64,000 bases of DNA from Rhodothermales bacterium (GTDB lineage: Bacteria > Bacteroidota > Rhodothermia > Rhodothermales > JANQRZ01): the NCBI GenBank assembly GCA_039944855.1, contig JBDUXZ010000021.1:1-64000 (forward strand), written 5' to 3'. Position 1 is the first letter of the stretch. Each line of letters starts with the position of its first letter. A model generated the notes under the pieces. It searched no databases, had not been told where the DNA came from, and saw only the letters and a program-made list of their open reading frames with translations. Shown in pieces: positions 29,701 to 47,075 of the stretch. A program made the position numbers and the translations under genes.

Positions 29701-29883
29701 CTGACCTTCGGCTAGCAGGCGCCTGAGGGAGCCTTCCGCTAAGCGCTCCTTCGCCAGTTGGGACGCGGCCTTCTTGTAGCGTAATTCCTTGGCGACGAAC
29801 AGATCGTCGTCGACGCCTTCCCACTCCGGAAAGTGCGTGCGGACCTGGGCAACGATAAGCGCGACGGCGTCGGGGATAGTCAT
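26746..29883 (-). CDS. mcrB: McrB-type AAA+ GTPase with EVE-like reader modules
   Basis: A 1045-residue protein, much longer than E. coli McrB (459). Residues 1-440 are unassigned. Residues about 445-600 (WLISPGPGAKHWKANFEAGEVAIGW) and 606-735 (HWWLNFSPAVW...FQSVEPGDLVIGYE...IVGLCSV) look like two EVE/PUA-type modified-base-reading modules. The AAA+ motor follows: GPPGVGKT near 790, the McrB-type FHQSYAYEDFVQGYRP, DEVNRGN near 870 and MNTADRSLAVVDYALRRRF. It should recognise modified DNA and drive McrC cleavage. It starts 48 bases after the HATPase-DUF4325 gene. Confidence 0.92.
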   Translation of the reverse strand: MTIPDAVALIVAQVRTHFPEWEGVDDDLFVAKELRYKKAASQLAKERLAEGSLRRLLAEGQADEVASRFIEVGKATNLLYKAAARQGDLAPLHDPAVRAATCGALVELLYGDGDVVERVSAFAEFLPAHGLHRNWPLATYFLYFVYPESEVFIKPEKVRSFLKVVGSPVELGTLNGEDYGHVRALAHELRDAMEDYGVRTMIDVQSLIWITGGGYDPDEEAQEEQEASSLVGKLEEDVRAHLHEFATIANAWFDQWNELGTYHDFFRRFFEPDHLSSLEWEDTQEVGRHLHSMQSMALARGNAFGRPNHEIEHYRRAFEYFARGEGPLAVRLDRLRTDEEVRLKYLGESALGEMAGQYFADEYSLFNERSRWALDFLGISHDESAGQSFGARFVAFSEAVATLIPLYRDVVGQRTDWPIRLEVDQFLSWVYETYRESEDVEVEDKTRSVWLISPGPGAKHWKANFEAGEVAIGWPSLGDLHSYSSTTEMAARLHEKDPAGPTPTNDARACWEFAHVIRKGDLVFAKRGRSAIVGAGTVTSDYEYEPARGEYCHVRRVDWTLKGEWGTGERQLPTKTLTGISKYPDMVAELKELVGIKGGEQPQHTVRHWWLNFSPAVWSLADADVGHTQLYTAQNEAGNNRQKYAHFQSVEPGDLVIGYESTPAKRIVGLCSVTRGLHATADGREAIEFEKTAAVTDGPTWTDLRAMPALEEAEPIQNNQGSLFSLSPDAYAEIVALLDVGGEAEVVDTEESPTSEPYTVADLASEAFADPAEVEAWVELLRRRKNLILQGPPGVGKTFLARRLAWALMGVRDPERVRFVQFHQSYAYEDFVQGYRPGDTGGFELKDGLFYEFVQAAKERPEEPHVFIIDEVNRGNLSKIFGELMMLIEPDKRGREFAIPLTYSKGPKQQFYVPDNVHLLGMMNTADRSLAVVDYALRRRFAFVTLAPAMGREPFQQFLQERGADASLISLIANRIRALNAKIASDGDLGAGFCVGHSYFCPSAGDDVSTAWYERVIRTEVGPLLREYWFDRPSEAEAAVAALLA

Positions 29884-29931
29884 GGGGCTGTGGAGTCCAT
29901 ATCAGTCGGGAAGGGAGCGCTCGGTGCGGGA

Positions 29932-31128
29932 TCAGTTGGTGGGACCCGTACGGCCAAGCCGTTGGGTCGTGACGACGTTGGCCATGTCGAGAAGCCGCGG
30001 GGAGAGATTCACCAGGCGGACCCGCTCCCGGAAGGCGTCGTCGCCGAGCTCGTCGGCCAAGCGCCCGATGAGCTCGTCGAGAAATGAGCTCGACGCCCGG
30101 TTCACCCCCTCGAAGTCGAGCACGAGAGGCCCTTCTAAGTCGGGCAACAGGTTCAGCGCCTTCGTCCGCAGCCGGCGAGCCGGTGCTCGCGTCCCCGTAT
30201 TGCTCACCTCCTGCCGCACGAGCAGACCGTCCTCCGCCTGTTCTGCTGCAGCCTCGAGGTAGCTCCACCCTGGCTCGCCGATGAAGGTGTCCGCAAGATC
30301 TACGGGACGGCGGAGATCGAGACGGAACGAAGCTCCAGTCCCGGGCACCGCCGACGGGAGCACCTCGAACCCCCTGTCCTGCCCGTTCTCCATGCGGAGC
30401 ACGGCGTCGCCCGTCCAGAGGTCGAAGCCACCCCGGTTGCGCTCGGTGATCTGTCGCGCACCAGCGAGGCCATTGCCTTGTCCCACCGCTGGATCCCGCG
30501 TGACGCCGCGCTGTACAGCCTTCTTCAAGGCCTGCCCCGCCGTCTGCTCCCATGGTTCGAGGACGGGCGACAGCGACGCTTGCAGCCCGCGGCCTACATC
30601 CACGATCCCCACATCGAGCACGTGCGTCCGTGGGTCGAGACGGGCGCAAACGGCCCCGGGAACGGGGGCTTCGGCGTGGAGCTCGATGTTGTCGATCGTC
30701 TCGTTGATGGCCCACTCCAGGGCTGGAACGAACGAACGAGCGTCGGATACCTCCTGCACGACGAGATCGAGGATCGCATTCGTTGCCTCGAACACGTCCG
30801 TGCCGTCGGCGATGAAGCGGACAGGTACGAAGAGCGAGCCGTTGGAGCGGACCCCACCCGAGGGGCTCTCGCGCCCCAGCGACTCCATCACGCCTAGCCG
30901 GTCGAGAAGAGCTACCTGTTGGCGGTCGCCGTCGAGCGTGACGAGCACGCCGCGCTCGCGGGCCCATCGCCCCCACGTCGCGAGGAGCGCGGCCCCAGCG
31001 GTCGGGAGTCCACCGCTGTCGACGCGGATCGTCACGCTCCGTACCTCGGGTGAGAAGACGCCAGCCTCAACCATCGATCGGACGACGTCGGCGGCGTGGG
31101 CGGCAGACGGAAAACGGACGAGGGCCAT
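29932..31128 (-). CDS. HATPase-DUF4325 (STAS-like) putative regulator
   Basis: A 398-residue protein; I chose MALVRFPSAAHAAD (31128) because the longer frame overlaps the helicase gene. Residues about 1-105 are a STAS-like alpha/beta fold (VTIRVDSGGLPTAGAALLATWGRW). Residues about 130-280 form a histidine-kinase-type ATPase: N-box NETIDNIELH, G1-like VGIVDVGRGL and G2-like GQGNGLAGARQI. Residues about 310-390 match DUF4325: LVLDFEGVNRASSSFLDELIGRLADELG. There is no phospho-acceptor histidine domain. Such proteins may switch partners in a nucleotide-dependent way. It sits between a helicase gene (16 bases) and mcrB (48 bases), so it may regulate one or both. Confidence 0.8.
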   Translation of the reverse strand: MALVRFPSAAHAADVVRSMVEAGVFSPEVRSVTIRVDSGGLPTAGAALLATWGRWARERGVLVTLDGDRQQVALLDRLGVMESLGRESPSGGVRSNGSLFVPVRFIADGTDVFEATNAILDLVVQEVSDARSFVPALEWAINETIDNIELHAEAPVPGAVCARLDPRTHVLDVGIVDVGRGLQASLSPVLEPWEQTAGQALKKAVQRGVTRDPAVGQGNGLAGARQITERNRGGFDLWTGDAVLRMENGQDRGFEVLPSAVPGTGASFRLDLRRPVDLADTFIGEPGWSYLEAAAEQAEDGLLVRQEVSNTGTRAPARRLRTKALNLLPDLEGPLVLDFEGVNRASSSFLDELIGRLADELGDDAFRERVRLVNLSPRLLDMANVVTTQRLGRTGPTN

Positions 31129-31144
31129 AAAGATGCGGTTTGAT

Positions 31145-33838
31145 TCAGGTGGTAGCGGCGTGGGAGACGAGCGCGCCCAAGGGACCGCCAGCGGCTCGGC
31201 AGGCTTCAGCATCACCAACTACGTGGAGACCGGCCCGCGCACGGGTGACGGCGACGTTGAGCAGGGCCTCGGTGGTAGCGGCCCAGCGCCGCGTTCCGTC
31301 ACGCATTCCCTCCGAAACCACCGGCGAGAACACGATCACGTCGCGCTCGTCGCCTTGAAACGTGTGAGCGGTGCCCGTGCCGACGCGCTCGCGGAAGCTG
31401 TCGTACCACGGTGCCTCTCGAATCCGGCGCTTGATCCGATCGGACTGCGCACGGAACGGAGTGACGACACCGACGGTGGCCTCGGCCCCCAGCGTTTCGA
31501 GGAGCAGCCGGACGTGTTCGAGCACAGCGTCGAGCTCGGGCTCGTTGTAGGCGCTCCGCGCGGCCTGAGGTACGCGCCCCCGTACGTCATGCCAGAAAAC
31601 GCCCTGCTGGGCAGTAGGAACGATTTGGGCGAGCCTGCCGAGGTCTGTCCGGACCTTGAGCTGTCCTCCGTAGAACTGCCGGTTGGAGAACGCGATGATC
31701 GAGGGGTGGCTGCGGTAGTGCTCGTCGAGAAACAGGGGCTCGCCGCGTCCTGCGTCACGGTTCGCGCGCGCCGTCGCGTCGAAGAGCGAGTGGCGGACGT
31801 ACGACCAGGCAGGGAGCAGGGCGGAGGAAGAGGCGAGCCCAGCCTCTTGCTTCACGTCGATGCCGGGGATGTGGCGGAGCTGGTTGGGGTCTCCGATGAC
31901 AGCCGCACGGCGCGCGCGGTACAGCAGGGGCACCGCGGAGGCGAGATCGCACTGACTCGCCTCGTCGATCACGACGAGGTCGAAGAGCGACGGCCGGAGC
32001 GGGAGAGCATTCTTGACCGATAGTGCAGTCGTGATCCAGATGGGGAAGCAGGCAGCGAGCCGCTCCTGTGCAGCGCTGAACACGTCAAGCGACCGTGCGA
32101 AGGCGGCCCCCTTCCCGCTCACGCCCTCTCGCGCTCGCTGATAGGCACGGAGGGCCGCCCGGGCTTCGTCAGCGTTGTCGTAGAGGCGGCGGGCCCAGAC
32201 GGCGCGGCAGAGTCGGGTGGTGGCGTCCGCCAGTTCCGTCTTCAGCGCCGCTCGCTCCTCCTCGGGCGTGTCAGCGCGAGAAAGCGCACCGCGGAGGGCC
32301 TCCTTTGCCTTCTGAGCTTCGGCTCGCGCCCCGAGCCATCCATGGTACGCAATGGACAGGCGGAGGGCTCGGATGATGGGCGCGTACCCATCCTCCTGCA
32401 TCACGTCGAGCGATACGTTTTCGCGTACCTCCGCCGGCGCGGCGGCGAGTGCCGCGTCGAGCCCATCGGTGAGCTCGCGGCGGACGGCCGAGCCCCGGAA
32501 CAGCCGCCGGAGCCAACGGACCAAGCCGAGCGGGGTCTCGCCGCCATATGCGCGAGCCTCTTCGAGGAGGTCGCGGAGCGTACGCAGGTCCAGCGGAGGT
32601 CTCGCATCGGCCGGTGTGGCCGACCGCCAAAGCTCCGGCACCGGCTCAGCGGCACTGCGCTCCGCCACCGTCGCCTCCCGGACGTCACTTTCGAGGCGGT
32701 CAAGACGGGCCAGCTTGGCTTTCACGCCCTGCACGGCGGCCCGCGCCTCCTCGTCATCGCCTGGTGGGCCGGTCTCTTCGAGCCGCGCGAGGCGTTCGAG
32801 AAGCTCGGGGGCGAGAGCGTCCATCGCTTCCTTGTTACCGAGGCGCAGGCTGAAATCATAGGGCTCGCCGAGCGCCTCGCGGAGCCTCTCCCGGACGACA
32901 TCGATGGCCTGGTTGTTCTTGCTCGCAAAGAGGACCGGGCGTGCCTCGAGGATGGCCGTCGCGAGAAGGTCGATGACGACCTGCGATTTCCCTGTTCCGG
33001 GGGGGCCGGTGATGACCGTCAGCGGCTGGCGTAGGGCGGCCTCCGCCGCCTGCTCTTGGGATGGGTTGAGTGGGCGGATCTCGGCCGGGTCAATACCCTC
33101 TCCGGGTGTAGCCGCTTCTCCCATTAGGACGCCGAGGGCCGTCCCCCGCGTCCCTGCCTGGACCGAATCGTACCGTTTGAGGGCAGAGAGCTCCTGCCGG
33201 AGATTGTACGTGAACGGCCCCCGGGCGTCACGTAGGAATACCGGCGTCCGGACCCATCGGACGCCTGTATCGCTCGGGAACGGCTCCAACTGAGGGCTCG
33301 CTGCATCCTCGAACGGGGAGTCGTCGAAGTAGGCGAGGGCAGCCTTCAGCCGCGCGGCAAACGTCGCGAACTCGTCGCCCTCCAACTCAGCCTGGATGTG
33401 ATCGCGTTCCTCGTCGGTGTAGCCAGTGAGGAGGTAGCGGTTAAGGAGAAGGTCGCCGGTACGATGGACACGGTAGACTGGCGCGCCTCCCCTATCGCCG
33501 AGATCTTCGACCGAGACGGGAAGCACGAAGAGCGGCGCGAGTCGGCCGCGGCCGTCGAAGCGGAGCGGGTACCCGTAGTAGCCGGTGTCGGGGCCTGACG
33601 GGCCCGCGGCCCCCTTGGCGAGGTACGCGCGCTCGGATGCCGTCGTAGGAGCGAGGCGCTCTGCGTCAGCTCCAGGATGCAGCAGGGGTTCCGTGCCCGA
33701 CCACGGGGCAACGAAGCTCTTGCCTCGATCCTGCGTGCGGAGCTGGAGCGCACGGCGGTCCTCCGCCTCGATGCAATCGAGGTAGAAGGCAGCCAGGCGG
33801 CCTGAGAACGCGCCGATGTCTTTCCGATCGGTGCTCAT
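31145..33838 (-). CDS. SF1 helicase (DNA2/NAM7, COG1112-like)
   Basis: An 897-residue protein. A 250-residue N-terminal region of unknown fold precedes the motor. Motor motifs: LNPSQEQAAEAAL, Walker A GPPGTGKSQVVIDLL near 280, a long helical insertion about 370-590, then VVIDEASQCD near 622, GDPNQLRHIPG, FLDEHYRSHPSIIAF near 703, GVVTPFRAQ, GTAHTFQGDERDVIVFS near 825 and NVAVTRARAGLHVVGD. These are AAA_11/AAA_12 signatures. The gene is coupled to the upstream PLD-fold gene by an ATGA overlap, as in Mokosh-type helicase/PLD systems, but no kinase domain is fused here. Confidence 0.9.
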   Translation of the reverse strand: MSTDRKDIGAFSGRLAAFYLDCIEAEDRRALQLRTQDRGKSFVAPWSGTEPLLHPGADAERLAPTTASERAYLAKGAAGPSGPDTGYYGYPLRFDGRGRLAPLFVLPVSVEDLGDRGGAPVYRVHRTGDLLLNRYLLTGYTDEERDHIQAELEGDEFATFAARLKAALAYFDDSPFEDAASPQLEPFPSDTGVRWVRTPVFLRDARGPFTYNLRQELSALKRYDSVQAGTRGTALGVLMGEAATPGEGIDPAEIRPLNPSQEQAAEAALRQPLTVITGPPGTGKSQVVIDLLATAILEARPVLFASKNNQAIDVVRERLREALGEPYDFSLRLGNKEAMDALAPELLERLARLEETGPPGDDEEARAAVQGVKAKLARLDRLESDVREATVAERSAAEPVPELWRSATPADARPPLDLRTLRDLLEEARAYGGETPLGLVRWLRRLFRGSAVRRELTDGLDAALAAAPAEVRENVSLDVMQEDGYAPIIRALRLSIAYHGWLGARAEAQKAKEALRGALSRADTPEEERAALKTELADATTRLCRAVWARRLYDNADEARAALRAYQRAREGVSGKGAAFARSLDVFSAAQERLAACFPIWITTALSVKNALPLRPSLFDLVVIDEASQCDLASAVPLLYRARRAAVIGDPNQLRHIPGIDVKQEAGLASSSALLPAWSYVRHSLFDATARANRDAGRGEPLFLDEHYRSHPSIIAFSNRQFYGGQLKVRTDLGRLAQIVPTAQQGVFWHDVRGRVPQAARSAYNEPELDAVLEHVRLLLETLGAEATVGVVTPFRAQSDRIKRRIREAPWYDSFRERVGTGTAHTFQGDERDVIVFSPVVSEGMRDGTRRWAATTEALLNVAVTRARAGLHVVGDAEACRAAGGPLGALVSHAATT

Positions 33839-35127
33839 GAAGGCTTGGCTTCGAAGGCAGACCTGAGGTGGCGGAGTTCGTCGGCGCTTGTCCGGTCGAT
33901 GATCTCTGCTTCGTACAACTCACGGATGAACTCCTCGTCGTCGAAGTCCTCCCATGTCATGTCGTAGAAGTGGACAGCCAGTTCGATCCGTTCCAGCACC
34001 TCAGCCGGGTCCGGGAAAGAGATCTTGGAAACGATGTGCCGTGCCCTCCTCTCGGCCATCTTGGCGAGGTCGTCGGGCCGATCTCGAAACAGACCGAAGT
34101 CTGCTGGCGGATTGTCCTGCAGAAGTCGCGTTGCTTCTTTCACGAGGACGCGCTCGGCTTCGTCAATGGAGTGCATTACGTCACTGGCCATCTCGGATAC
34201 GAGCGATGGAATCTGCTTCCGCAAGCGTTCTACCTCGTCGAGGATGGCCTGCTTGTCCTTCGTTGCGAAGACCCGCTTCTTGCGGGAGGCGAGGTACGTA
34301 GTCCACTTCTCCCGAAGCGCGTCCACCTCGCGCTTGAACGCCCGGAACGACTCAAGCACGTCACTATCGAAGACCCTCATCCGCGTTCGGAGCAAGTCGC
34401 CGAGCTGCTCGCTCACCCCCAACGGAATGTCTGTGGGCAGCGAGACGGTCCGTTCACCGAACGCCCCACCCTTCAGCGTGATCTCCACAAACTGCAGCCG
34501 GTTGGTGTAGACGTTGAGTCGGCGCGTCAGGTCGGGGTCACGTGGTGGATTCCGCTCCAGCGCTTCCTTGGCGTCCACTAAGCGCTGCTCGTCGACGGGA
34601 GCGACGCCTGACACAGGCGCGTCCACCTCGGCCGCGTTGCGGAGCGCCTGGGGGTTCGAGAGCGCCGTATCAAGGCGTGCCTCGGCCTCTTGTTCTTCCG
34701 CCTCGGAGCGAGGAGGAAAGAAGGCGCGGACAAGTCGGGCGGTGCTCAAGGGGTCGAGGCGGACAGCGTCGAGGCCCTCTCCGTCGGCCACGAACATCCG
34801 GCTTCGTGCGAAGTGGAGGTAGCCCTCACCGTCGGCGACGACAAGGCCGATGGCATTACCAAGCAATTGACGGACTTCCGCTCCCGCGCCGCGCAGCAGA
34901 TCGACCGTGCGGAGCGAGCCCATACCGAAGCGCTCCGTCTCCTCAGAGGGATCCAAGACGACGCGCACGTCGGCACCTCGGTGGGCCGCCTCTGCAAGGG
35001 CATGCGCGCGGGGCTCGTCGAGTCCAGGGGCCACAATGCGGATCTCGTCAGCACTATCGATGAGGTCGATAAGTGTCCGGTGGTCCGCGGCGAAGACGAG
35101 GGAGCGTTCGGATTTCGGATCTTGCAT
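33835..35127 (-). CDS. PLD-fold protein lacking the HKD motif, with coiled coil
   Basis: A 430-residue protein. Residues about 8-125 follow a phospholipase-D/helicase-associated pattern (LIDLIDSADEIRIVAPGLD; RGADVRVVLDPSE; LLRGAGAEVRQLLGNAIGLVVADGEGYLHFARSRM). The expected HxKxxxxD is replaced, so it is probably not a nuclease. A central domain (FVEITLKGGAFGERTVSLP) leads to a helical/coiled-coil part (FRAFKREVDALREKWTTYLASRKK). The C-terminus is acidic with paired helices. Its stop overlaps the start of the SF1 helicase (ATGA). It may be a structural partner of that helicase; the PLD assignment rests on pattern only. Confidence 0.6.
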   Translation of the reverse strand: MQDPKSERSLVFAADHRTLIDLIDSADEIRIVAPGLDEPRAHALAEAAHRGADVRVVLDPSEETERFGMGSLRTVDLLRGAGAEVRQLLGNAIGLVVADGEGYLHFARSRMFVADGEGLDAVRLDPLSTARLVRAFFPPRSEAEEQEAEARLDTALSNPQALRNAAEVDAPVSGVAPVDEQRLVDAKEALERNPPRDPDLTRRLNVYTNRLQFVEITLKGGAFGERTVSLPTDIPLGVSEQLGDLLRTRMRVFDSDVLESFRAFKREVDALREKWTTYLASRKKRVFATKDKQAILDEVERLRKQIPSLVSEMASDVMHSIDEAERVLVKEATRLLQDNPPADFGLFRDRPDDLAKMAERRARHIVSKISFPDPAEVLERIELAVHFYDMTWEDFDDEEFIRELYEAEIIDRTSADELRHLRSAFEAKPS

Positions 35128-35133
35128 CGACGA

Positions 35134-35739
35134 TTACCTAGAGCGGAGGAGGGGGAGGGCGCGGGTGAGGAGGAAGGCGGCCACAGGCGGTCGAGGGTCG
35201 TTCGCGTCGAAGACGACACACGGCCATGACCGATACTTGTGCGTCTCGCCGTAGACATCCTCACGGATGCCGCAGGCCCGCGCTCCCAGCCTGGCGAACT
35301 CGATTTCCACATTACAACCGGCCAAGTCGCTTAGCTCTTTCACAGCGACCGAAGCTAGTTTGGGGCGTACCTCCGGGCCAGGCGGTACGTCCACCCCTCG
35401 GAGCACAGCGTAGGAGCGGCCTCGGTGCGCGTGGGCTTTCTCAGGGATGGACTGAACATCGAGCCGGAGGCGACCACAGTTGAGCCGCGAGAACGGGACG
35501 CCTCCGCCTTCAGCGAAGTGGGGCCGCACGTCGCGCTCGCCGTTCTCCCAGTGGGCGTAGTGGATCTCGATCGTGGCTCCTCGCCTTGTCCTAGCCTCGA
35601 ACGAGTACAGCCGGCCCTCGCAGGCGACGCGGTTCGTTGTCTTGCCCTCAGGCGCTCGTACGGGTAGCTCATGCGGGACGACTTGGAACGGGCCGACTTG
35701 GAAGGGCACCCACTTATGATCGGCAAAGGGAGCGGTCAT
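35134..35739 (-). CDS. unknown 201-aa protein in the defence cluster
   Basis: No family recognised. It has a beta-rich central part (RLYSFEARTRRGATIEIHYAHWENGERDVRPHF) and a hydrophobic C-terminus (PVAAFLLTRALPLLR), though not long enough for a confident membrane helix. Its ATG overlaps the stop of a 35-codon frame (ATGA), and it ends six bases before the PLD-fold gene. It is therefore tightly embedded in the operon and likely functions with the PLD/helicase pair. Confidence 0.7.
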   Translation of the reverse strand: MTAPFADHKWVPFQVGPFQVVPHELPVRAPEGKTTNRVACEGRLYSFEARTRRGATIEIHYAHWENGERDVRPHFAEGGGVPFSRLNCGRLRLDVQSIPEKAHAHRGRSYAVLRGVDVPPGPEVRPKLASVAVKELSDLAGCNVEIEFARLGARACGIREDVYGETHKYRSWPCVVFDANDPRPPVAAFLLTRALPLLRSR

Positions 35740-35843
35740 GCTCCCACCCCCCGCTGTAGGTGGGCGACGGCGGGGCTGGCGGGGGAAGGAGGGGTCGGAT
35801 GCTGCGGAGTGGAAGGCCCCTCGATCCGTCTGAGATTATTCAT
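35736..35843 (-). CDS. coupled 35-aa mini-ORF, remnant or leader peptide
   Basis: Starts at an ATG inside the last codons of the AlbA_2 gene (coding-strand ATGAATAA) and stops at TGA overlapping the ATG of the 201-residue gene. It encodes MNNLRRIEGPSTPQHP then a tail ending ASPAVAHLQRGVGA. The tail resembles the methyltransferase C-terminus (ASPAVAHPPREVEA) in protein and DNA. It bridges two genes with no translational gap. It may be a relic of an insertion event rather than a functional peptide. Confidence 0.5.
   Translation of the reverse strand: MNNLRRIEGPSTPQHPTPPSPASPAVAHLQRGVGA
35741..35783 (-). repeat. direct repeat flanking the AlbA_2 gene, left copy
   Basis: About 43 bases, imperfect at the left (14 of 20) and identical over the last 23-25 bases (TGGGCGACGG, CGGGGCTGGCGGG) with 37841-37883. 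The offset is exactly 2100 bases, and the stop codons of the two flanked reading frames occupy the same position in both copies. Confidence 0.75.
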
Positions 35844-37797
35844 AGCTCTCCTCGTCTCGGGTCCGATAGGCTTGGCGAGGATCGCTTTTGGTGGGGTATT
35901 TCTGTTCGAGGCGGCCTTCGGAGACTAGCTCCGGGATGTAGTGCGTGCGCAGGGTTCGGGGGTCCCGATTGAGCAGGTCGGCCAGCTCCTGGAGCGTCAG
36001 GTAGCGTCCTGTGCAGAGCTCCAAGATCGTCCGGCGTACGAGCTTTCGAGGAGCAGTCTTGCGTGTGCTGACGGGCTTTGCGATGGCTCGGAGACGTTCA
36101 TCTTGCTCGACGTCCTGCTCCTCTTGGGTAGAGCCCCCTTCGGAATGTGTAGAGCTCTCGGCCGGATGTGTAGAGCTCCCTTCGGAGTCTATAGAAGGAG
36201 GCTCCGAGGGCGTGGTGTAGACGAGGGCGCCCGTAGAGTGTGTAGAGTTCCAATCGAACAGAGAGAGCGACTCCTCTCTTGGCTTGGGTTCAATCTCATC
36301 TCCATCCTGGGCCAGTGAGTAGTAGGTGCCCCGGCCCGTTCCATCGGAGAGGAGCAACCCCCGGTCAACCAGCTCCCGCAGCCAGCGCGTGAGGTCACGG
36401 GGGTGCTCGTCGGAGAGCTCGCGGAGCCGGTGGTTGGTGACCTTACCCTCGATGAGCGCCGTGGCTAGCGCGAGGCGCTGAATTTCCGGGAGGTGATCAA
36501 ACACGCCGGCGTAGAGCTCTTGTAGCTGCGCAATGGCCTCTTGAGGGATCAGGCTCATCATGGAGAGTTCGAGCACGGTGAACTCCGGATCGAACGATTC
36601 GCGGAGCAGCGGCTTCCGCCAGTGTTTCTCTCGCCAAGCACGGAGGATCTTGGGGAAGCCCGACCCCGCCTGCTCGGCCGCGCCGATCATCTGGAACATC
36701 TTCTGCAGGTTCCGATTGCGGCAGTCGCTGTTCCCTCCATCGAAGACCTGCTCCAGCGGGATGCGGAGCCCGCCGGGGTTGCGAAAGATGAAGCGGTCCG
36801 GCTTTTTGATGACCAGGATGCCCGTGCTGCCTGCGTAGTCCGCATGGATGAGCGTGTTGACGAGGGCCTCACGTAGCGCCTCGTGCACGTGGCTCTCGTC
36901 GACGCGCTTGTGACCGTGCTCGAGGCGGAAGGGCACCCGTAGGCCCGACGTCAGGCGCGGGTAGACCCGGCGGTAGAAGCCGTACAGGTTGCCCGACCAC
37001 GTGCCGTCCGTCGTGACGCGGTCGGTCCAGCGTGTATCGGGGTCGGCGTCGCTCCCTTCCCGTTCTTGGTAGTCCACGAGGTAGTGCGGGACGGCCTCCA
37101 AAATGGAGGCCAGCTTGCCGAACATCAGCAATCCGGCAAGGGTCAGCCCCTCCTCGCCGGTCTGGCGGTCGCGGCGCCAGCCGCCGAGGGACTGAAGCAG
37201 CATCTGGTCGTCCTGAGCGAGCCAGGGGTGGCCGGGGCGGGTGCTCTTAAAGTCGTTCCGGAAGGCGGCCAGGCTGTCCGCGTCGATGTCCTCTAACGTG
37301 TAGCCCTCAAGCAGCCGGGCGTCGCGGTCGTCGGCCTCGGCCTCGGCGATCATGCGGCGCACCGTAGCGTCGTCACAGCGGTAGTCGCCCTCGTGACCGC
37401 GCCGGTACGTGCCGGTGAACGGGTTATCGCCGGTGTGGACGGGCCGGCGCTTGCGGGGCGCCCGCGGGACGTGCACGAGCAGGAGCTGGCGCCCCTCGAT
37501 CTCGACGACGCGCACGTCGTCGTTCTCAAGAAGGTTGACGTTGACGAGCTGGGTGTTGTTGACGCCGTTCCAGAAGTCTCGTCGGACCCGCTCCATGTCC
37601 CCGAGCCCGACGAAGTCGAGAGTCCCGTCATCACGCTCGGCGGCTCCCAGCAGGATGTACCCGCCCTGCGTGTTGGCGAAGGCGGAGTATGTAGGCCAGA
37701 TGCTCCCGGGCACGGCGCCGTCACCGTCGCGCCCTTGCGCGGCCTTCGCCTCGAAGTCGTAGGCTTCCCGATAGCTCAGGAGTTCCTCTGGGGTCAT
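35836..37797 (-). CDS. AlbA_2 / RecG-like ATP-binding putative regulator
   Basis: A 653-residue protein starting at MTPEELLSYREAYDFEAK (37797). The N-terminal 130 residues match the Schlafen AlbA_2 domain (FEAKAAQGRD...WPTYSAFANTQGGYILLGAAERDDG; FWNGVNNTQLVNVNLL). Residues about 290-370 match the GHKL ATPase region of COG2865 proteins (VHEALREALVNTLIHADYAGSTGILVIKKPDRFIFRNPGGL). Winged-helix parts follow. A Ser/Thr/His-rich linker with repeated SSTHSEG-like units lies near 535-570, then a final HTH (LTLQELADLLNRDPRTLRTHYIPELV). It may regulate or assist the defence genes. Direct repeats flank it, suggesting it was inserted as a module. Confidence 0.85.
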   Translation of the reverse strand: MTPEELLSYREAYDFEAKAAQGRDGDGAVPGSIWPTYSAFANTQGGYILLGAAERDDGTLDFVGLGDMERVRRDFWNGVNNTQLVNVNLLENDDVRVVEIEGRQLLLVHVPRAPRKRRPVHTGDNPFTGTYRRGHEGDYRCDDATVRRMIAEAEADDRDARLLEGYTLEDIDADSLAAFRNDFKSTRPGHPWLAQDDQMLLQSLGGWRRDRQTGEEGLTLAGLLMFGKLASILEAVPHYLVDYQEREGSDADPDTRWTDRVTTDGTWSGNLYGFYRRVYPRLTSGLRVPFRLEHGHKRVDESHVHEALREALVNTLIHADYAGSTGILVIKKPDRFIFRNPGGLRIPLEQVFDGGNSDCRNRNLQKMFQMIGAAEQAGSGFPKILRAWREKHWRKPLLRESFDPEFTVLELSMMSLIPQEAIAQLQELYAGVFDHLPEIQRLALATALIEGKVTNHRLRELSDEHPRDLTRWLRELVDRGLLLSDGTGRGTYYSLAQDGDEIEPKPREESLSLFDWNSTHSTGALVYTTPSEPPSIDSEGSSTHPAESSTHSEGGSTQEEQDVEQDERLRAIAKPVSTRKTAPRKLVRRTILELCTGRYLTLQELADLLNRDPRTLRTHYIPELVSEGRLEQKYPTKSDPRQAYRTRDEESYE

Positions 37798-37835
37798 GCG
37801 CGGACTCGTGGGTACGGGGGATGCAGGATGAGAAC

Positions 37836-40800
37836 CTACGCCTCCACCTCCCGTGGTGGGTGGGCGACGGCGGGGCTGGCGGGCGGCGGGTCGAGGATGG
37901 TCTCGTAGGCCGCGCCGGCCTCGGCGGCTTGCTGGAGCCGGTCGTAGACGGCGAGGATCATGTCCTTCGTGCGGTAGCTCCCGTGCGCCTTCTCGTCCTT
38001 CCGCTTGACGATGGGGAACGTGTCCATAACGTAGGCGACGGCGGCGCGCGGAGTGGGGAACGACTGGCGGAGCGCCTCGGGCTCCTCGGCCCAGGCCTCC
38101 GGCGTGCCGAGGTAGAGATGGAAGAAGGCGGCGTCCAGCTCGGCGCGGAGCTTCTCCCGGCGGGCCTCGTCCCAGACGAACGGCGGGCCGTCGTAGCCGA
38201 CGTCGCGGGCGAAGGGTTGGAGGTCCCAGGCGGTGTAGGTCAGCTCGAGGACGCGGGGGCGGATCCAATCGGCAAGCATCTGCTCCGGCAACCAGGGGCA
38301 GGGGTGGAGATAGGTTTCAGGCGGGAGGACAGGGAGCTGTTTGAGGATGAAATGAGAGAAGTTGGTCCCCCCGAGACTCTGGCGCGTGGCATAATCGAAC
38401 ACAAAGCTATTCAGGCAACTGAGCAGTAGGGTGCTCTCTGTCCATTCACATTCAGGCTCGATAAGCTGACATGCATGATTCGCCGCGACGAGAGGCAGTA
38501 CGGTAAAGACAGCTGTTCTTCGATTGGTTGTCGTATTAACAATGTTTCTAAAGGTGATTAGGCCCGCCGGTGCCTTATCTAGCTTGGATATGACCTCCTT
38601 CCGCTCCACCCAGTATCTCGGCAGAGGGACAACATTCGGATTCTTAAGCTCACCACTTAAACTGACCGCCTGAGCCTTAACTCGGAAGCGGCTGTCCGCG
38701 GAAACTTGGTCAAAGGTGTTGTACCGATGATTGTACTGGTGAAATAGCTTCGGCTCGTAAAGGGGGAGGTACCGATCCTCGGCTTCGCCCACAAAGCGGT
38801 TACCCTCCATCCGATAGCCCTCGGACTCTAGCACTTCGCGAGCGCGGAATAGGTCAGAGTCGTTCGCCATATGGAACATTGTGCTGAACCGGATGCGCCA
38901 AGGATTTTCCTCGGGCGAACCCTCTACGATAAAGACAGGCACGCGACGGTAGAGCGCCTTGGTCAACTCCGCGTCGCGTCGCCATCTAAACAGAGGTGCT
39001 GTCTTAGTATTGGGGTTCAGCAAGACAATATCTTCGGCAGATAAGTCACTAATCCTGTCCGCATCCCTTGCCGCGCCGACGGAGTCCAAGTCGAACCCGA
39101 ACTCGAAGGTAGAGCGCGCAACCGAGGAGTTTCTGCCTCGGATTGTCAGTAGGCAAAACGGGTCGGGGCTCTTCGTCCCACGGAAGAAAGCCGAGATGCG
39201 AGTGAAGCTTAGTATGCTCTCAATCCGCTGATTCTGCACCAGCTCGTCGAAGAATGCCTTAGTCGTGTCGGACGTCACCAGAACTGTAGGTGTGACGATA
39301 CCTGCCCTTCCAGCCTCGGAGACAAGTTGCATGAAGCGCTCAGCGAAGACGGCATAGGTGTTAACATCGCCGCGCCCGCAGAGCGGGTATACACCGCTGT
39401 CGCGGAGCAGTGTGCTCTCGCCCTCAGCCTGCCGCTGCGCCTCGCGGAACGCCTCGAACAACGCGGGGTCCTCCGTCTCTAGCTGCTTGATGAGCGTCGT
39501 CCGTGCGGCCTTGTTGCGCGCCCCAGCGATATCCGGCCGGACGCCCGCAAAGAACTCCTTCTCCTGCAGCTTGACCCGCTCCCACGGTGGGTTACCGAGG
39601 ACGCAGTCGAAGCCGCCGCGCCAGCCTGCCGTCTCGTCGGTCGGCGTCTCGTCCGGACCGGGCACGCGGAAAACGTCGGGGAAGGCGAGGTGCCAGTGGA
39701 GGAACCGGTACCGCTCGGCTAGCCGTTGGACCTCGCGCCGCATCCAGTCGGGTGTTGCGTGCGGGTTGCGCTCGATCTTGCGGTAGACCTCCTCGTGGAT
39801 CGGGTAGGCGAGGTCGTCGCTCGGCCACTTGGGCCACACGAATGCCGCGCACCACGCGTCAGCCAGCAGCCGGGCATGCTCGTACGCCTGCGAGTGGACG
39901 GCGGCGGCGTACCGCTTGGCCTTGTCCTGCACGGCCTCCACCGAGTCGTTCGGCAGCGCGTCCAGCTCGGCGATGACCTGCGGCATGTTGCCCAGCCGCT
40001 CCCACGGCATCGCCTCGGCCGCGAACAGGTCGTGCTGGCGCTTCTTCCTAAAGGTCCGGTTCTGCGCCTTGTACTCGTTCGCGTACGCCTTCACATCGCC
40101 CGTGATGGGCTTGAACGCCTCGTCCGGGATGCCCTCGCGGAGCGCGGCGGGCGTGGCCCCGAGGAGCCCGTTGCCCACCTGGAGGTGGTGGTCGAGGAAC
40201 GAGAGCGGCTTGCCCGGCTCCAGCGACTCCAGCCACAGGTTCACCTTGCACAGCTCCAGCGCCATCGGGTTGAGGTCCACGCCGTAGACGCACCGCGCGA
40301 TGACGTCGCGGAGGGCGTGCTGCCGCTGCTCGGGCGTGGGCTCGCCGCCGTCGGCCTTCGCCGCCCGCACCCGCGCCAGCCGCCCGGCGATGCGGTGCGC
40401 CGCCGCGATGAGGAAGTGCCCGCTGCCCACGGCCGGATCGCACACCTTCAGCGCCAGCAGCGACGCTTCGGGGTCGTCGGCCTTCTCGGCCCGGTCAAGC
40501 ACGGGGTCGAGCGCGGTGTCGAGGAGGGCCTGGATGAGCCCCTCCGGCGTGTAGTACGAGCCCGTCGTCTTCCGCTCACTCCCGGCCACCGCTTCCAGCA
40601 CAAACGCGTGGGCGTCGAGGTTCAGCTGCGGCTGGAGTTCGAGCAGGCTCTCGTAGATGCCGCCCAACTCCTCCGGCCCGAGGTGCTTGTAGTCTACGCT
40701 CCGTCGCACGCGGTCCTGCTCCACGAGCGAGAGCGCCCGCACAGCCTCCAGGAACGGCTCGTTCGCCAGCTTGGATTGTGCGAGCGTTCCAATGGCATCG

Positions 40801-41930
40801 TCGCTCCAGAGAAAGGAGCCCAGCGCCGGCAGCGCGAGGCGGGGCTCGCCCGTCTCGCCGAGGGCGCGCATGATGAGCTTGAGCTGCTCCCAGCGGTCGC
40901 CGTGGCGGGCGCTTCCCCGCCGCTTCTCCGCCAGGGCGCGGAGTGCCGCCGTCGAGTAGTACTTCGCGTACCGCTCTTTGGCTGCGTCGTCCCCCTTCGG
41001 GTCGAGCAGGGCCTCGCGGTCCTCGGCGGTGAACAGGAAGATGAGGCGGTAGACAAGCCGGAGCAGCTGGCGGTAGTAGTCCTGCGGGTCGAGGTCGCCA
41101 CTGCGGAGCGCCTCCCGCAGCGCCTCGTTCTCGCGGTGGGCGATGAACCCGGCGCCGAGGTGCTCGATGGCCTGCTGTACCCCGTCACGCAGGGCGTCCA
41201 ACGCCCGCGTGCCCTGTTCGTGGGCCTGCACGCTCCACCGCTCCAGCCAGCAGGCCTCCGGCGTCGCGCCCTCGGTCCGGCTCGCGTGCGCCGTCAGCCA
41301 GAGGACCGCGAAGTCCGCATACGCCTCGCCCTCGAACATCGCCTCCAGGTCGAACTCCACGTACGCTTGCCGCGTGAGGCTCGCGTTGTCGCGGAGCAGC
41401 CGGAGCTTGAGCCCGTTCGTGAGAATCGCCCACAAGTGCTCGTCGGAGCGGTTGAGCAGCTCCTGCGTCATCGCGTGCGGCGCATACGTCGCCGCCCCCG
41501 CCACGCCCGCCGACTTCCGGTCGAGGTCGACCTTGTACGAGAGCAGATGGACCGGCAGGTGCCTGTACCCGTGGGAGACGGGGTAGCGCTTCCCCTCGAT
41601 CTCGTACGTCTCCGTCTTCAGCCGCCCGTACCCCAGCTCCTCGAAGAGCGGGAGCAGCCAACCCTCTCGCGTCTCCGTCGTCCCGCGGGCGTCCTCCAGA
41701 GCGTCGAGGCGGAGCCGCTCGTCGCGGAAGGCGGCCCACAACCCCTGCAGCCGGTTCCAGCTCCGGCTGGCCGCCTCGCCCAGCTTCTCGTTCTTGGCCA
41801 GCCCATAGTCCTGCGGCCGGAGCCCCCCGAGGTCCGCGTCCTGGTCGGCCACGCGCTGGAGGAGGTCCATCGGCAGGATAGCCCCCTCGGTCTTGACGGA
41901 TTGGAAGGGTGTGCGGGTGCGGGTAGACAT
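37836..41930 (-). CDS. Eco57I/PglX-like adenine-specific DNA methyltransferase
   Basis: A 1364-residue protein. The N-terminal 440 residues are a helical and specificity-like region with a possible degenerate nuclease core. Methyltransferase motifs: TGSYYTPEGLIQALLD near 456, SAM-binding DPAVGSGHFLIAAAHRIAG near 498, VYGVDLNPMALELCKVNLWLESLEPG and catalytic NPPWERVK near 779. A target-recognition region covers roughly 855-1200, and its DNA (about 38330-39370) is clearly poorer in GC than the rest. The tail is DPPPASPAVAHPPREVEA. The size and layout fit DISARM DrmMI or BREX PglX type enzymes. It starts 60 bases after the 731-residue gene. Confidence 0.92.
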   Translation of the reverse strand: MSTRTRTPFQSVKTEGAILPMDLLQRVADQDADLGGLRPQDYGLAKNEKLGEAASRSWNRLQGLWAAFRDERLRLDALEDARGTTETREGWLLPLFEELGYGRLKTETYEIEGKRYPVSHGYRHLPVHLLSYKVDLDRKSAGVAGAATYAPHAMTQELLNRSDEHLWAILTNGLKLRLLRDNASLTRQAYVEFDLEAMFEGEAYADFAVLWLTAHASRTEGATPEACWLERWSVQAHEQGTRALDALRDGVQQAIEHLGAGFIAHRENEALREALRSGDLDPQDYYRQLLRLVYRLIFLFTAEDREALLDPKGDDAAKERYAKYYSTAALRALAEKRRGSARHGDRWEQLKLIMRALGETGEPRLALPALGSFLWSDDAIGTLAQSKLANEPFLEAVRALSLVEQDRVRRSVDYKHLGPEELGGIYESLLELQPQLNLDAHAFVLEAVAGSERKTTGSYYTPEGLIQALLDTALDPVLDRAEKADDPEASLLALKVCDPAVGSGHFLIAAAHRIAGRLARVRAAKADGGEPTPEQRQHALRDVIARCVYGVDLNPMALELCKVNLWLESLEPGKPLSFLDHHLQVGNGLLGATPAALREGIPDEAFKPITGDVKAYANEYKAQNRTFRKKRQHDLFAAEAMPWERLGNMPQVIAELDALPNDSVEAVQDKAKRYAAAVHSQAYEHARLLADAWCAAFVWPKWPSDDLAYPIHEEVYRKIERNPHATPDWMRREVQRLAERYRFLHWHLAFPDVFRVPGPDETPTDETAGWRGGFDCVLGNPPWERVKLQEKEFFAGVRPDIAGARNKAARTTLIKQLETEDPALFEAFREAQRQAEGESTLLRDSGVYPLCGRGDVNTYAVFAERFMQLVSEAGRAGIVTPTVLVTSDTTKAFFDELVQNQRIESILSFTRISAFFRGTKSPDPFCLLTIRGRNSSVARSTFEFGFDLDSVGAARDADRISDLSAEDIVLLNPNTKTAPLFRWRRDAELTKALYRRVPVFIVEGSPEENPWRIRFSTMFHMANDSDLFRAREVLESEGYRMEGNRFVGEAEDRYLPLYEPKLFHQYNHRYNTFDQVSADSRFRVKAQAVSLSGELKNPNVVPLPRYWVERKEVISKLDKAPAGLITFRNIVNTTTNRRTAVFTVLPLVAANHACQLIEPECEWTESTLLLSCLNSFVFDYATRQSLGGTNFSHFILKQLPVLPPETYLHPCPWLPEQMLADWIRPRVLELTYTAWDLQPFARDVGYDGPPFVWDEARREKLRAELDAAFFHLYLGTPEAWAEEPEALRQSFPTPRAAVAYVMDTFPIVKRKDEKAHGSYRTKDMILAVYDRLQQAAEAGAAYETILDPPPASPAVAHPPREVEA
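37841..37883 (-). repeat. direct repeat flanking the AlbA_2 gene, right copy
   Basis: Lies inside the last codons of the methyltransferase gene; partner of 35741-35783. Confidence 0.75.
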
Positions 41931-44255: not shown

Positions 44256-47075
44256 TCAGGCGGCTGGAAGGAGGATGAACACCCCAAGTACGTCTGGCTC
44301 GTCCTGGTGCTGGACCGTATAGCGACCCGTCGCTTTGGCCGCATCGCGGACGCGCCGGTGGGCATCGAGAAGGTCGTCTCCCCTTCGCTTCGCCTCGGCC
44401 TCGATCTTTGGTCGGAGCGCGTCGAACTCGTCGGTCACCCGCTGGAGGAAGTGCCGTGCCTGGTCGGGGCCAATGTTGGCGTCGGGCGTGGCGGAGAGGC
44501 TCGCCGCCGCCAGCCCTTCGGGCAGCCACGTCGGATCCGACGGCGCCCCTTGGAAGCCGAGCACGCCGACGTCTTCCGCGAGCATGGCGCGCTCCTCGCC
44601 CTCACGCGTGACGACGAGGTGGAATCGGAAGCGCACCAGCAGCACGGTCGTTCGCGTTGTGACAGCCTGGGTCCGGACGACGCCCGATCGCCGGGCCACG
44701 CCCTCGCCGTCGAGCGCAGCGTCGAGCACGTGACTCGCGAGGCCCTCCACGAACGGGTGCGTCCGTACGAGACGAACTTCGCCGTCATCCACAGGCCCTT
44801 CGAACCGGACTCGCAGCTCTTGGCGCCCCCCGACCGCATCCTGAAGGCTCCGCGGGGTCTCCGTCAGATCGAGTCGGACGACCTCGCCACCGTGGTCTTG
44901 AGCCACGACTCCACCGTGCGTTCGGATCGCGTCGGTCACGAACCGTCGGACGTCGAGCGGGCCGCCGATCGCCGACCGGATCGCCTCCAGCTCGCGGACC
45001 ACGTCGTCCGTCTTGATCCGCTCCTGGGCGAACATCGTCCGGGAGCGCGTCTCTTTCGTCGCGCTTTCTTCCCACTCCGTATGAACGTCCTCAAACTGCT
45101 CTTTCGTGAGGTCGTCAAAGAGGCCCATCTGCTGGCTCGACACCCGGGCCCCGCGGAGCACCAGGCCCTCGAACACGGCTTCGACGAGCGCGTCCGAGCC
45201 CGTGGGGACCGGCACAGAGATGCCGAGCTGGCTCCGGATCGTCTTGTGCTTACGGAGCAGCACGTCGAGGACGAGCCCGTCAATCTGGTTGTCCTTCCCG
45301 AACAGCGTCACCACGCGCACCTCCTTCCGGGGCTGCCCGTAGCGGTCCACGCGCCCCTCGCGCTGCTCGTGCCGCGTCGGGTTCCACGCGAGGTCGTAGT
45401 GCAGCACGGCGTCGAACGCTTCCTGCAGGTTGATCCCCTCAGAGAGGCAGTCGGTGGCTACGAGCACGCGCTTATCCGCCTGGGCCAGCTCGGCCACGCG
45501 GGCCTCACGCTCGGTCGGGGCCAGCAGGCCCGTCACCGCGGCGACTTCCACGCCTCGTAGCGCGGTGCGCAGCGCTTCGGCCACGTACTCCGCCGTCTGG
45601 ATGAAGCGGCAGAACACGATAGGCTGGTGCCCATCCTTCAGCAGTCGCTTTACGAGGCTGATGCCCTTGGTGAGCTTCGCGTCTGCCGTGCCGCCGAGTG
45701 CCTCCGCCCGGCGGGCCAGTGCCCGCAGCCGCGCTTGGTCGGTCGAGCGCGTGTCGTCCTCAAGCGTCACGAGTGCGCCGTGCACGAGGTCGGCCCCCTC
45801 CGCGTCGTCGTCCACTGCCATGTCCATCACGCGATGCCGGCCAATCGCATCGGCCTCTGCTACGGTCTTAGCCTCTGCCGACGCGGCCCGGTTCGTGAGG
45901 GTCGCGGCGGCGGCGGCCGGACTGGAGGCCAGCGCCCGCAGCAGGCTGAGCGCGCTCCACCAGCGCACCCGCTGATCCCGGCTCCCCGATTCCGCCGACC
46001 CGACGCTCTCGCGGGTGTAGTCCAGTACGTCGTTGAAAAGCGTGGCGTACTCCGGGGTAAGCGTGTAGGCCCCCTCGCTCTCCTCGACCTCGATCCGCGT
46101 GGGGAACGGCGTGTCCTCGTCGGCGAAGTGCTTGATGTCTGCCCGGCGGCGTTGTACGAACTGCCCCGCGAGCTTCCGCCGGACGGGCTCCTGTGAGGGG
46201 CCGGTCAGGTCGGCCGGAAGATTTACGTAGCTCGTGTCCAACAGCGTCAGCAAGGACCGAAACGCCTCTTCCTTCCCACTGTGGGGCGTTGCCGTTACGA
46301 GGATGAGGTGGCGATGCGCGCCTTCCGCGAGCTTTTTGACCAGTTCGTGTCGCTGGTGCTGGGCGCCGCGGCCGTCCGCCTGGGCGCACGTGTGGGCCTC
46401 GTCCACGATGACGAGATCGGGGCACGAACGGACGAACTCGTCCCGCCGCCGGTCGCTCTTGACGTAGTCCATCGAGACAACGGTGTAGGGAAACACCTCA
46501 AAGATGGACTGCCGTGCGCTCGCGAACTTCTCCAGCCGCCGCGCCGTGCTCGGCAGCACCAGCTCTGCCTCAATGTGGAACTTCTCGGCCAGCTCGCGCT
46601 GCCACTGCTCGGCCAACTGGGGCGGGCAGAGCACGGTCAGTCCCCCTGCGTCACCGCGGGCAAGCAGTTCCTTTGCGATGAGCCCGGACTCGACCGTCTT
46701 TCCGATCCCTACGTCGTCGGCGATCAGGAGTCGCACGGGGTCCATCTTCAGGGCCATCAGGAGCGGCACAAGCTGGTACGACCGGGGCTCCACGCCCAGG
46801 CTCGCGAACGACCGGAACGGGCCGGCGCTGGCGCGGAAGCCCAACCGCACGGCGTCGTAGAGCATCCGCGCCGATCGGAAATCCCCGGCCCGAGCTGGGT
46901 CCGGCAGCGCGAACGTAGCGGAGCGGGCGTCCTCGAGGAGCGTGTCGAGCCCCGTGATCTCGTCGTCGGTCCCGCCGAGCGGGCGGAGCACGAGGAGCTC
47001 GTCTTGGCTTTCGGGGAGAACGACCCACTCGCGGCCGCGAGCGTGGACGAGGGAGCCTATGGCGAAGTCGGTCAT
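44256..47075 (-). CDS. SNF2-family helicase (DrmD-like)
   Basis: A 939-residue SF2 motor: Q-like SYQLVPLLMAL, Walker A DDVGIGKTVESGLIAKELL near 118, PPQLAEQWQREL, DEAH in VIVDEAHTCAQ near 222, LVTATPHSGKEEAFRSLL, a long spacer with helical insert, and then VFCRFIQTAEYVAEALR, VLVATDCLSEGINLQEAFDAVLHYDLAWNPTRHEQREGRVDRYGQ (motif VI near 575). The C-terminal 330 residues are helicase-associated. It resembles RapA/SNF2-like proteins such as DISARM DrmD. It starts 11 bases after the stop of the DUF1998 helicase. Confidence 0.92.
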   Translation of the reverse strand: MTDFAIGSLVHARGREWVVLPESQDELLVLRPLGGTDDEITGLDTLLEDARSATFALPDPARAGDFRSARMLYDAVRLGFRASAGPFRSFASLGVEPRSYQLVPLLMALKMDPVRLLIADDVGIGKTVESGLIAKELLARGDAGGLTVLCPPQLAEQWQRELAEKFHIEAELVLPSTARRLEKFASARQSIFEVFPYTVVSMDYVKSDRRRDEFVRSCPDLVIVDEAHTCAQADGRGAQHQRHELVKKLAEGAHRHLILVTATPHSGKEEAFRSLLTLLDTSYVNLPADLTGPSQEPVRRKLAGQFVQRRRADIKHFADEDTPFPTRIEVEESEGAYTLTPEYATLFNDVLDYTRESVGSAESGSRDQRVRWWSALSLLRALASSPAAAAATLTNRAASAEAKTVAEADAIGRHRVMDMAVDDDAEGADLVHGALVTLEDDTRSTDQARLRALARRAEALGGTADAKLTKGISLVKRLLKDGHQPIVFCRFIQTAEYVAEALRTALRGVEVAAVTGLLAPTEREARVAELAQADKRVLVATDCLSEGINLQEAFDAVLHYDLAWNPTRHEQREGRVDRYGQPRKEVRVVTLFGKDNQIDGLVLDVLLRKHKTIRSQLGISVPVPTGSDALVEAVFEGLVLRGARVSSQQMGLFDDLTKEQFEDVHTEWEESATKETRSRTMFAQERIKTDDVVRELEAIRSAIGGPLDVRRFVTDAIRTHGGVVAQDHGGEVVRLDLTETPRSLQDAVGGRQELRVRFEGPVDDGEVRLVRTHPFVEGLASHVLDAALDGEGVARRSGVVRTQAVTTRTTVLLVRFRFHLVVTREGEERAMLAEDVGVLGFQGAPSDPTWLPEGLAAASLSATPDANIGPDQARHFLQRVTDEFDALRPKIEAEAKRRGDDLLDAHRRVRDAAKATGRYTVQHQDEPDVLGVFILLPAA

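What the first reader, a model, noticed from the sequence alone, without database searches (positions are those of the whole stretch)
35736..37884. Insertion scar around the AlbA_2 gene and a perfectly coupled 35-codon ORF
Seen: a roughly 43-base direct repeat lies at 35741 and 37841, exactly 2100 bases apart, flanking the AlbA_2 gene. The right copy is the methyltransferase C-terminus. The left copy is the end of a 35-codon frame that starts inside the AlbA_2 stop (ATGAATAA) and stops on the next gene's ATG (ATGA). Both frames end in the same place within the repeat and share ASPAVAH. Inference: AlbA_2 was inserted by duplication of the methyltransferase tail, preserving coupling to the 201-aa gene; homologous recombination would excise it cleanly.
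Basis: partly seen in the sequence, partly recalled or inferred. Interest (0 to 1): 0.65.

Follow-up and report, generated by a model that had tools for sequence, protein, structure and literature searches.

The report
Defence-gene insertion with copied gene tail
A Schlafen-type defence gene was added inside an ARMADA-like anti-phage operon next to a second copy of the preceding gene's last 48 bases, and that copy forms a short relay reading frame holding the next gene's ribosome-binding site; the same kind of scar recurs in unrelated bacteria and archaea, so it looks like a repeatable way of adding genes to tightly packed operons.

Summary
A 48-nt block (39/48 identical, 25 nt of it perfect) ends the methyltransferase at 37836-37883 and recurs at 35736-35783; its core occurs twice in the whole genome. 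The second copy is the in-frame end of a 35-codon ORF that starts in the AlbA_2 stop and ends on the ATGA start of the 201-aa gene. The host operon fits ARMADA type I (YprA-like helicase, BrxHII-like helicase, PglX-like methyltransferase). AlbA_2 is a Schlafen-HATPase protein, a class reported as auxiliary effectors. No exact empty site was found, but the pattern recurs: direct repeats flank 8 of 69 related AlbA_2 genes against 7 of 412 control genes (p=3e-4); mini-ORFs ending in a copy of an upstream gene's tail occur in five other R-M loci; the nearest methyltransferase relative (L052) has its own copied tail. Copies diverge mostly at synonymous sites, so they look like alleles joined by recombination. 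The tail copy carries a strong Shine-Dalgarno sequence for the next gene, a likely reason for its retention. [quoted passage not shown] New here: a non-R-M accessory gene, the relay ORF, and a reason for retention.

The parts
35736..35843 (-). ORF35, 35-codon relay frame: about 20 novel codons plus the last 15 codons of a methyltransferase tail; starts in the AlbA_2 stop, stops on the p201 start
35736..35783 (-). second copy of the methyltransferase 3' end (48 nt including stop)
35740..35755 (-). purine-rich Shine-Dalgarno stretch (ggggggtgggagc) for p201, inside the tail copy; duplex energy -14.2 kcal/mol
35134..35739 (-). p201, 201-aa gene of unknown function; only relative found is the N-terminal part of a Sel1-repeat protein in an ARMADA-like locus (L004/L007)
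35836..37797 (-). AlbA_2 gene: SLFN_AlbA_2 + HATPase_c_4, 653 aa (ATG start 37797)
36125..36256 (-). 21-nt repeat units in the AlbA_2 linker (AGCTCTACACAT...)
37836..37883 (-). methyltransferase 3' end, first copy of the repeat
37836..41930 (-). PglX/DrmMI-like N6-adenine methyltransferase, 1364 aa
41991..44186 (-). 731-aa gene of unknown function between helicase and methyltransferase
44256..47075 (-). BrxHII/DpdE/DrmD-like SNF2 helicase
47087..52276 (-). YprA/DruE-like helicase, first gene of the ARMADA-type-I-like core
33835..35127 (-). PLD-like 430-aa gene downstream of p201
25667..33838 (-). rest of the downstream cargo: AAA_11/12 helicase, DrmA-N/STAS-like protein, EVE-McrB and McrC

Best explanation
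An ARMADA type-I-like operon in which the methyltransferase once overlapped the 201-aa gene (stop/start ATGA) acquired AlbA_2 by illegitimate or one-sided recombination with a second version of the locus (inferred). The event left two copies of the methyltransferase 3' end (shown): the live gene upstream of AlbA_2 keeps one, the other remains between AlbA_2 and the 201-aa gene. The second copy was kept because, in an overlapping gene pair, the downstream gene's ribosome-binding site and start lie inside the upstream gene's coding tail (sequence shown; function inferred). Its frame is open back to an ATG in the AlbA_2 stop, so ribosomes ending AlbA_2 can re-initiate, translate the 35-codon relay and end on the next start, preserving coupling (inferred). 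AlbA_2 itself probably acts as an auxiliary effector added to the operon, by analogy with Schlafen RNases linked to BREX systems.
For: Repeat and frame. AlbA_2 relatives lie between direct repeats more often than control genes: 8/69 vs 7/412, p=3e-4, window excluded (cases). Sister-genus genome G414: AlbA_2 between clpB and a 223-nt, 93% copy of the clpB tail; G340 has one clpB tail and no AlbA_2. Relay ORFs made of an upstream gene's tail: L102 (after AlbA_2 and after a DUF4357 gene, both starting ATGA on the cargo stop), L120 (hsdM tail twice, each ending ATGA on the next gene), L064, L083, L131; 6 of 11 end in a 4-nt overlap with the next start against a 9% base rate, 5 of 11 start on a stop against 3.6%. 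L052, nearest methyltransferase relative: tail copied at 99% after a YprA-helicase head fragment, its end holding the next gene's SD and ATG. Strong SD (-9.6 to -14.2 kcal/mol; background 5th percentile -8.8) in 5 of 6 tail copies that overlap the next start. Synonymous-biased divergence of copies.
Against: No locus with this methyltransferase directly abutting the 201-aa gene was found; only one other p201 relative is known. The window's own two tails differ by 4 synonymous and 5 non-synonymous changes over 48 nt, uninformative about allele origin. Locus-level enrichment of tail/head copies against random chromosome regions is not significant (9/86 vs 2/38, p=0.5; events 12 in 1.01 Mb vs 2 in 0.76 Mb). 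Several comparison loci are metagenome bins. L102 relay ORFs have no SD. Translation of ORF35 is untested.
Confidence: 0.65

Rival explanations
1. Plain insertion with long target duplication: AlbA_2 moved in as a unit and a 48-nt stretch of the target was duplicated, as described for restriction-modification genes.
For: Variable-length flanking repeats (34-223 nt) around AlbA_2 genes, including outside operons, e.g. clpB. Known for R-M genes (PMC3031569, PMC3874152, PMC1643837).
Against: Copies diverged mainly at synonymous sites, and head|tail fusion junctions in L131 and L052 are not expected from a simple local duplication.
Confidence: 0.22
2. Remnant of a tandem second copy of the operon: two operon versions stood side by side and internal deletion removed all of the second except its methyltransferase tail.
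For: L052 carries a YprA-helicase head fused to a methyltransferase tail, as such a deletion would leave.
Against: No other remnant of a second core gene is seen in the window; the 20-codon head of ORF35 matches no gene start in the loci held.
Confidence: 0.1
3. Convergent or chance similarity of two proline/alanine-rich tails.
For: The tails are short, and five of the last seven codons encode different residues.
Against: 25 perfect nt, only two sites in the genome, same frame and same stop position.
Confidence: 0.03

Closest known systems
Insertion with long target duplication of restriction-modification genes (Nobusato 2000; Furuta 2010; as cited in PMC3031569, PMC3874152, PMC1643837)
   Same: A defence gene is inserted between direct copies of a target stretch, of variable length in the order of 100 bp.
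   Different: Here the inserted gene is a Schlafen-type accessory gene, not an R-M gene; the copy is a gene tail kept in frame as a relay ORF holding the next gene's SD; some comparable junctions fuse fragments of two genes.
ARMADA type I (PMC12458937)
   Same: Gene order YprA-like helicase, BrxHII/RapA-like helicase, PglX-like methyltransferase.
   Different: A 731-aa gene interrupts the core, and AlbA_2, p201, PLD, helicase, STAS and McrBC genes follow the methyltransferase.
Schlafen-family RNase with minimal histidine kinase and wHTH as auxiliary effector of BREX (PMC12839542)
   Same: SLFN_AlbA_2 plus HATPase-type domain, placed inside a defence operon.
   Different: Linked here to an ARMADA-like core; RNase activity untested; the wHTH was not detected by Pfam.
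Satellite/prophage-like islands carrying ARMADA (PMC12458937)
   Same: Defence cargo added in waves; direct repeats.
   Different: Those repeats are 16-20 nt att-like sites of integrases at tRNA genes; here the repeats are gene tails and no integrase lies between them.

Membership tests
Insertion with long target duplication | inserted gene flanked by direct copies of target sequence | tested here: met
   40-nt 90% repeat 2100 apart around AlbA_2; unique in genome
Insertion with long target duplication | related genome shows the empty site with one copy | tested here: inconclusive
   no relative with the same methyltransferase-p201 junction; for the clpB case G340 has one tail and no AlbA_2 but a different outer flank
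Insertion with long target duplication | inserted unit is a restriction-modification gene (as in the published cases) | tested here: not met
   the insert is SLFN_AlbA_2/HATPase
ARMADA type I | YprA-like helicase gene first | tested here: met
   DruE-like 1729-aa helicase upstream, E 9.6e-103; the position in the YprA tree was not tested
[quoted passage not shown]
   DpdE/DrmD/BrxHII hits and DrmMI hit in that order, with one extra gene between
Schlafen auxiliary effector (SLFN + HATPase + wHTH) | SLFN_AlbA_2 and HATPase-type domains in one protein | tested here: met
   PF04326 14-134 and PF13749 332-402 above cut-offs
Schlafen auxiliary effector (SLFN + HATPase + wHTH) | C-terminal wHTH | tested here: inconclusive
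   conserved C-terminal segment in the alignment, no Pfam hit
Schlafen auxiliary effector (SLFN + HATPase + wHTH) | RNase activity | not testable with these tools
   needs biochemistry

The most novel reading that the evidence does not exclude
Copied gene tails are portable translation-coupling cassettes: accessory genes can enter overlapping gene pairs of defence operons only together with a second in-frame copy of the upstream gene's tail, which keeps the next gene's SD and stop-start overlap. Repeated rounds stack cargo, leaving relay ORFs as a readable record of operon assembly.
Probability: 0.45. Interest if true: 0.75.

Novelty: new variant of a known kind. Interest (0 to 1): 0.6.

Why it matters
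How defence operons with overlapping genes gain new genes without losing expression of their neighbours is little explained. A gene-tail copy carrying the next gene's ribosome-binding site, readable as a short relay ORF, would be a simple rule and a marker that can be searched for genome-wide to find recently added accessory effectors and to order their additions.

Tried and rejected
No relatives of the methyltransferase or of p201 in viral contigs; no DNA-level relatives of the insert in phages; p201 absent from plasmids. A DNA search of E. coli genomes with the Salmonella AlbA_2 relative gave one insertion next to dinD in 8 genomes; I did not look for its empty site. G340 clpB did not give an exact empty site because the sequence beyond the stop is not alignable. 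The idea that the scar reflects mobility peculiar to AlbA_2 was dropped because the same scars surround YhcG, DUF4357 and DUF3800 genes. The ORF35 head MNNLRRIEGPSTPQHPTPP matches no gene start in the loci held. GC3 differs only mildly between core (0.83-0.85), AlbA_2 (0.81) and downstream cargo (0.74-0.79). Repeats in L079 (frameshifted in my alignment) and L083 (frame not resolved) were left out of the synonymous count. L060, L080 and L119 repeats are not clean coding tails.

Full report
Observation. Two copies of a 40-nt sequence, 36/40 identical and exactly 2100 nt apart, flank AlbA_2. In register they extend to both stop codons (48 nt). The perfect 25-nt core, with up to three mismatches allowed, occurs nowhere else in the window or the 4.6-Mb genome. 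The right copy is the end of the methyltransferase (37836-41930, minus strand). The left copy is the end of a 35-codon ORF (35736-35843) that starts in the AlbA_2 stop (ATGAATAA) and whose stop overlaps the start of the 201-aa gene (ATGA).

What the locus is. PADLOC and Pfam models place a DruE-like YprA helicase (47087-52276), a DpdE/DrmD/BrxHII-like helicase (44256-47075) and a DrmMI/PglX-like methyltransferase in one operon. This is the gene order given for ARMADA type I (PMC12458937). Relatives with a similar core carry different genes behind the methyltransferase: McrB-McrC in Nocardioides with a 4-nt overlap, a restriction-endonuclease-like gene in L007, an 852-aa gene and a PLD gene in L194. 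So the methyltransferase 3' end is a variable junction. AlbA_2 (SLFN_AlbA_2 plus HATPase_c_4) belongs to the Schlafen-histidine-kinase-like class reported as auxiliary effectors of BREX systems (PMC12839542). Its relatives occur on plasmids, in satellites, in type I R-M operons and alone.

Recurrence. I fetched 80 further AlbA_2 loci. Within 400 nt of either side, strong direct repeats flank 8 of 69 AlbA_2 genes but only 7 of 412 other genes in the same loci (Fisher p=3e-4, window excluded; first version). In the sister-genus genome G414 the gene lies between clpB and a 223-nt, 93% copy of the clpB tail, whereas G340 has a single clpB tail and no AlbA_2. In L091 and L134 the repeated element is the start of hsdR, in L102 the end of hsdM.

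Relay ORFs. In L102 a type I R-M operon holds AlbA_2 followed, with ATGA overlap, by a 41-codon ORF that is the hsdM tail; a DUF4357 gene followed, with ATGA overlap, by a 57-codon ORF of novel head plus hsdS tail; and a YhcG gene between two copied mini-ORFs. In L120 the hsdM tail is present three times, each ending ATGA on the next gene. L064, L083 and L131 have further cases. A systematic scan found 35 mini-ORFs scoring at least 38 against an upstream gene's tail, versus 5 of 12,933 in a matched null. By my reading 11 of the 35 are genuine tail copies; the rest are low-complexity or repeat matches. Six of the 11 end in a 4-nt overlap with the next gene (base rate 9%, p=1.7e-4) and five begin on a gene's stop (base rate 3.6%, p=2e-5). 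The window's ORF35 is one of them; without it the values are p=0.001 and 0.0003.

The same gene in another genome. In G155 (L052), the nearest relative of this methyltransferase in its order, the tail is copied 5 kb downstream (122 nt, 99.2%). It sits directly behind a fragment of a YprA-helicase start, and its end contains the SD and ATG of a RAMP-family gene. L131 shows an hsdR fragment fused to an hsdS tail in front of AlbA_2.

Why the tail is kept. In overlapping gene pairs the downstream ribosome-binding site lies in the upstream coding tail. The p201 SD lies inside the tail copy and is the strongest measured (-14.2 kcal/mol; random 5th percentile -8.8). L120 (two), L131 hsdS and L052 are also strong (-9.6 to -12.0), L131 AlbA_2 is moderate (-6.0), and L102 has none. 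Retention by selection for this context is inferred.

How the copies arose. Across twelve coding pairs, 60.5 of 100 changes are synonymous where about 24 are expected under neutrality; clpB shows 15:1. A copy that decays after a local duplication should not look like this, so the copies were probably functional alleles joined by recombination. Part of the bias could instead reflect translation of the copies. The window's own pair is too short to decide.

Limits. There is no exact empty site for this locus. Against random chromosome regions the locus-level excess of tail or head copies is not significant (9/86 vs 2/38, p=0.5; event rate 11.8 vs 2.6 per Mb). Several comparison contigs are metagenome bins. 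Whether ORF35 is translated, and what AlbA_2 does here, is untested. The two primary papers on insertion with long target duplication were not held, so they are cited through papers that describe them.

A separate observation. The AlbA_2 linker carries tandem repeats, nearly always of 21 nt, in 76 of 87 relatives including the window, with a shared nucleotide consensus nnCTCCnnACATWWS. In units matching S-x-H, serine is TCC in 152 of 172 (186 of 1193 in the rest of the genes) and histidine CAT in 151 of 172 (318 of 543 in the rest). The motif CTCCnnACAT occurs 113 times in the linkers, and never elsewhere on the coding strand or in the 400 nt upstream. This points to a constraint on the nucleic acid, not only on the protein. 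Two literature searches found no description.

Noticed in passing
window 36125-36256 (AlbA_2 linker) and the same linker in 76 of 87 AlbA_2 genes examined: 21-nt (7-codon) tandem repeats, 2-11 copies, with a nucleotide-level consensus nnCTCCnnACATWWS kept across many phyla and through amino-acid changes; serine codon TCC 88% in the units vs 16% elsewhere. Suggests an intragenic DNA or RNA element.
   Followed up: partly
window 19432-20595 and 20620-21729: Two adjacent proteins with LuxR/GerE domains at their C-termini, 41% identical overall, that share a 167-nt stretch near their ends (the HTH) at 98% identity: tail exchange or gene conversion.
   Followed up: partly
L102:829-8582: A single type I R-M operon with three accessory genes (AlbA_2, YhcG, DUF4357), each next to a copied mini-ORF or gene tail.
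   Followed up: partly
L052:15743-17368: YprA-helicase head fragment fused to a methyltransferase tail directly in front of RAMP-family (type III CRISPR-like) genes, one with a PDZ insert.
   Followed up: partly
window 29932-31218: 428-aa protein matching only residues 33-395 of a 1750-aa DrmA model plus a STAS-like DUF4325 domain, overlapping the preceding helicase gene.
   Followed up: no
L007:14113-17310: p201-like domain fused to Sel1 repeats in an ARMADA-like locus of another family.
   Followed up: partly
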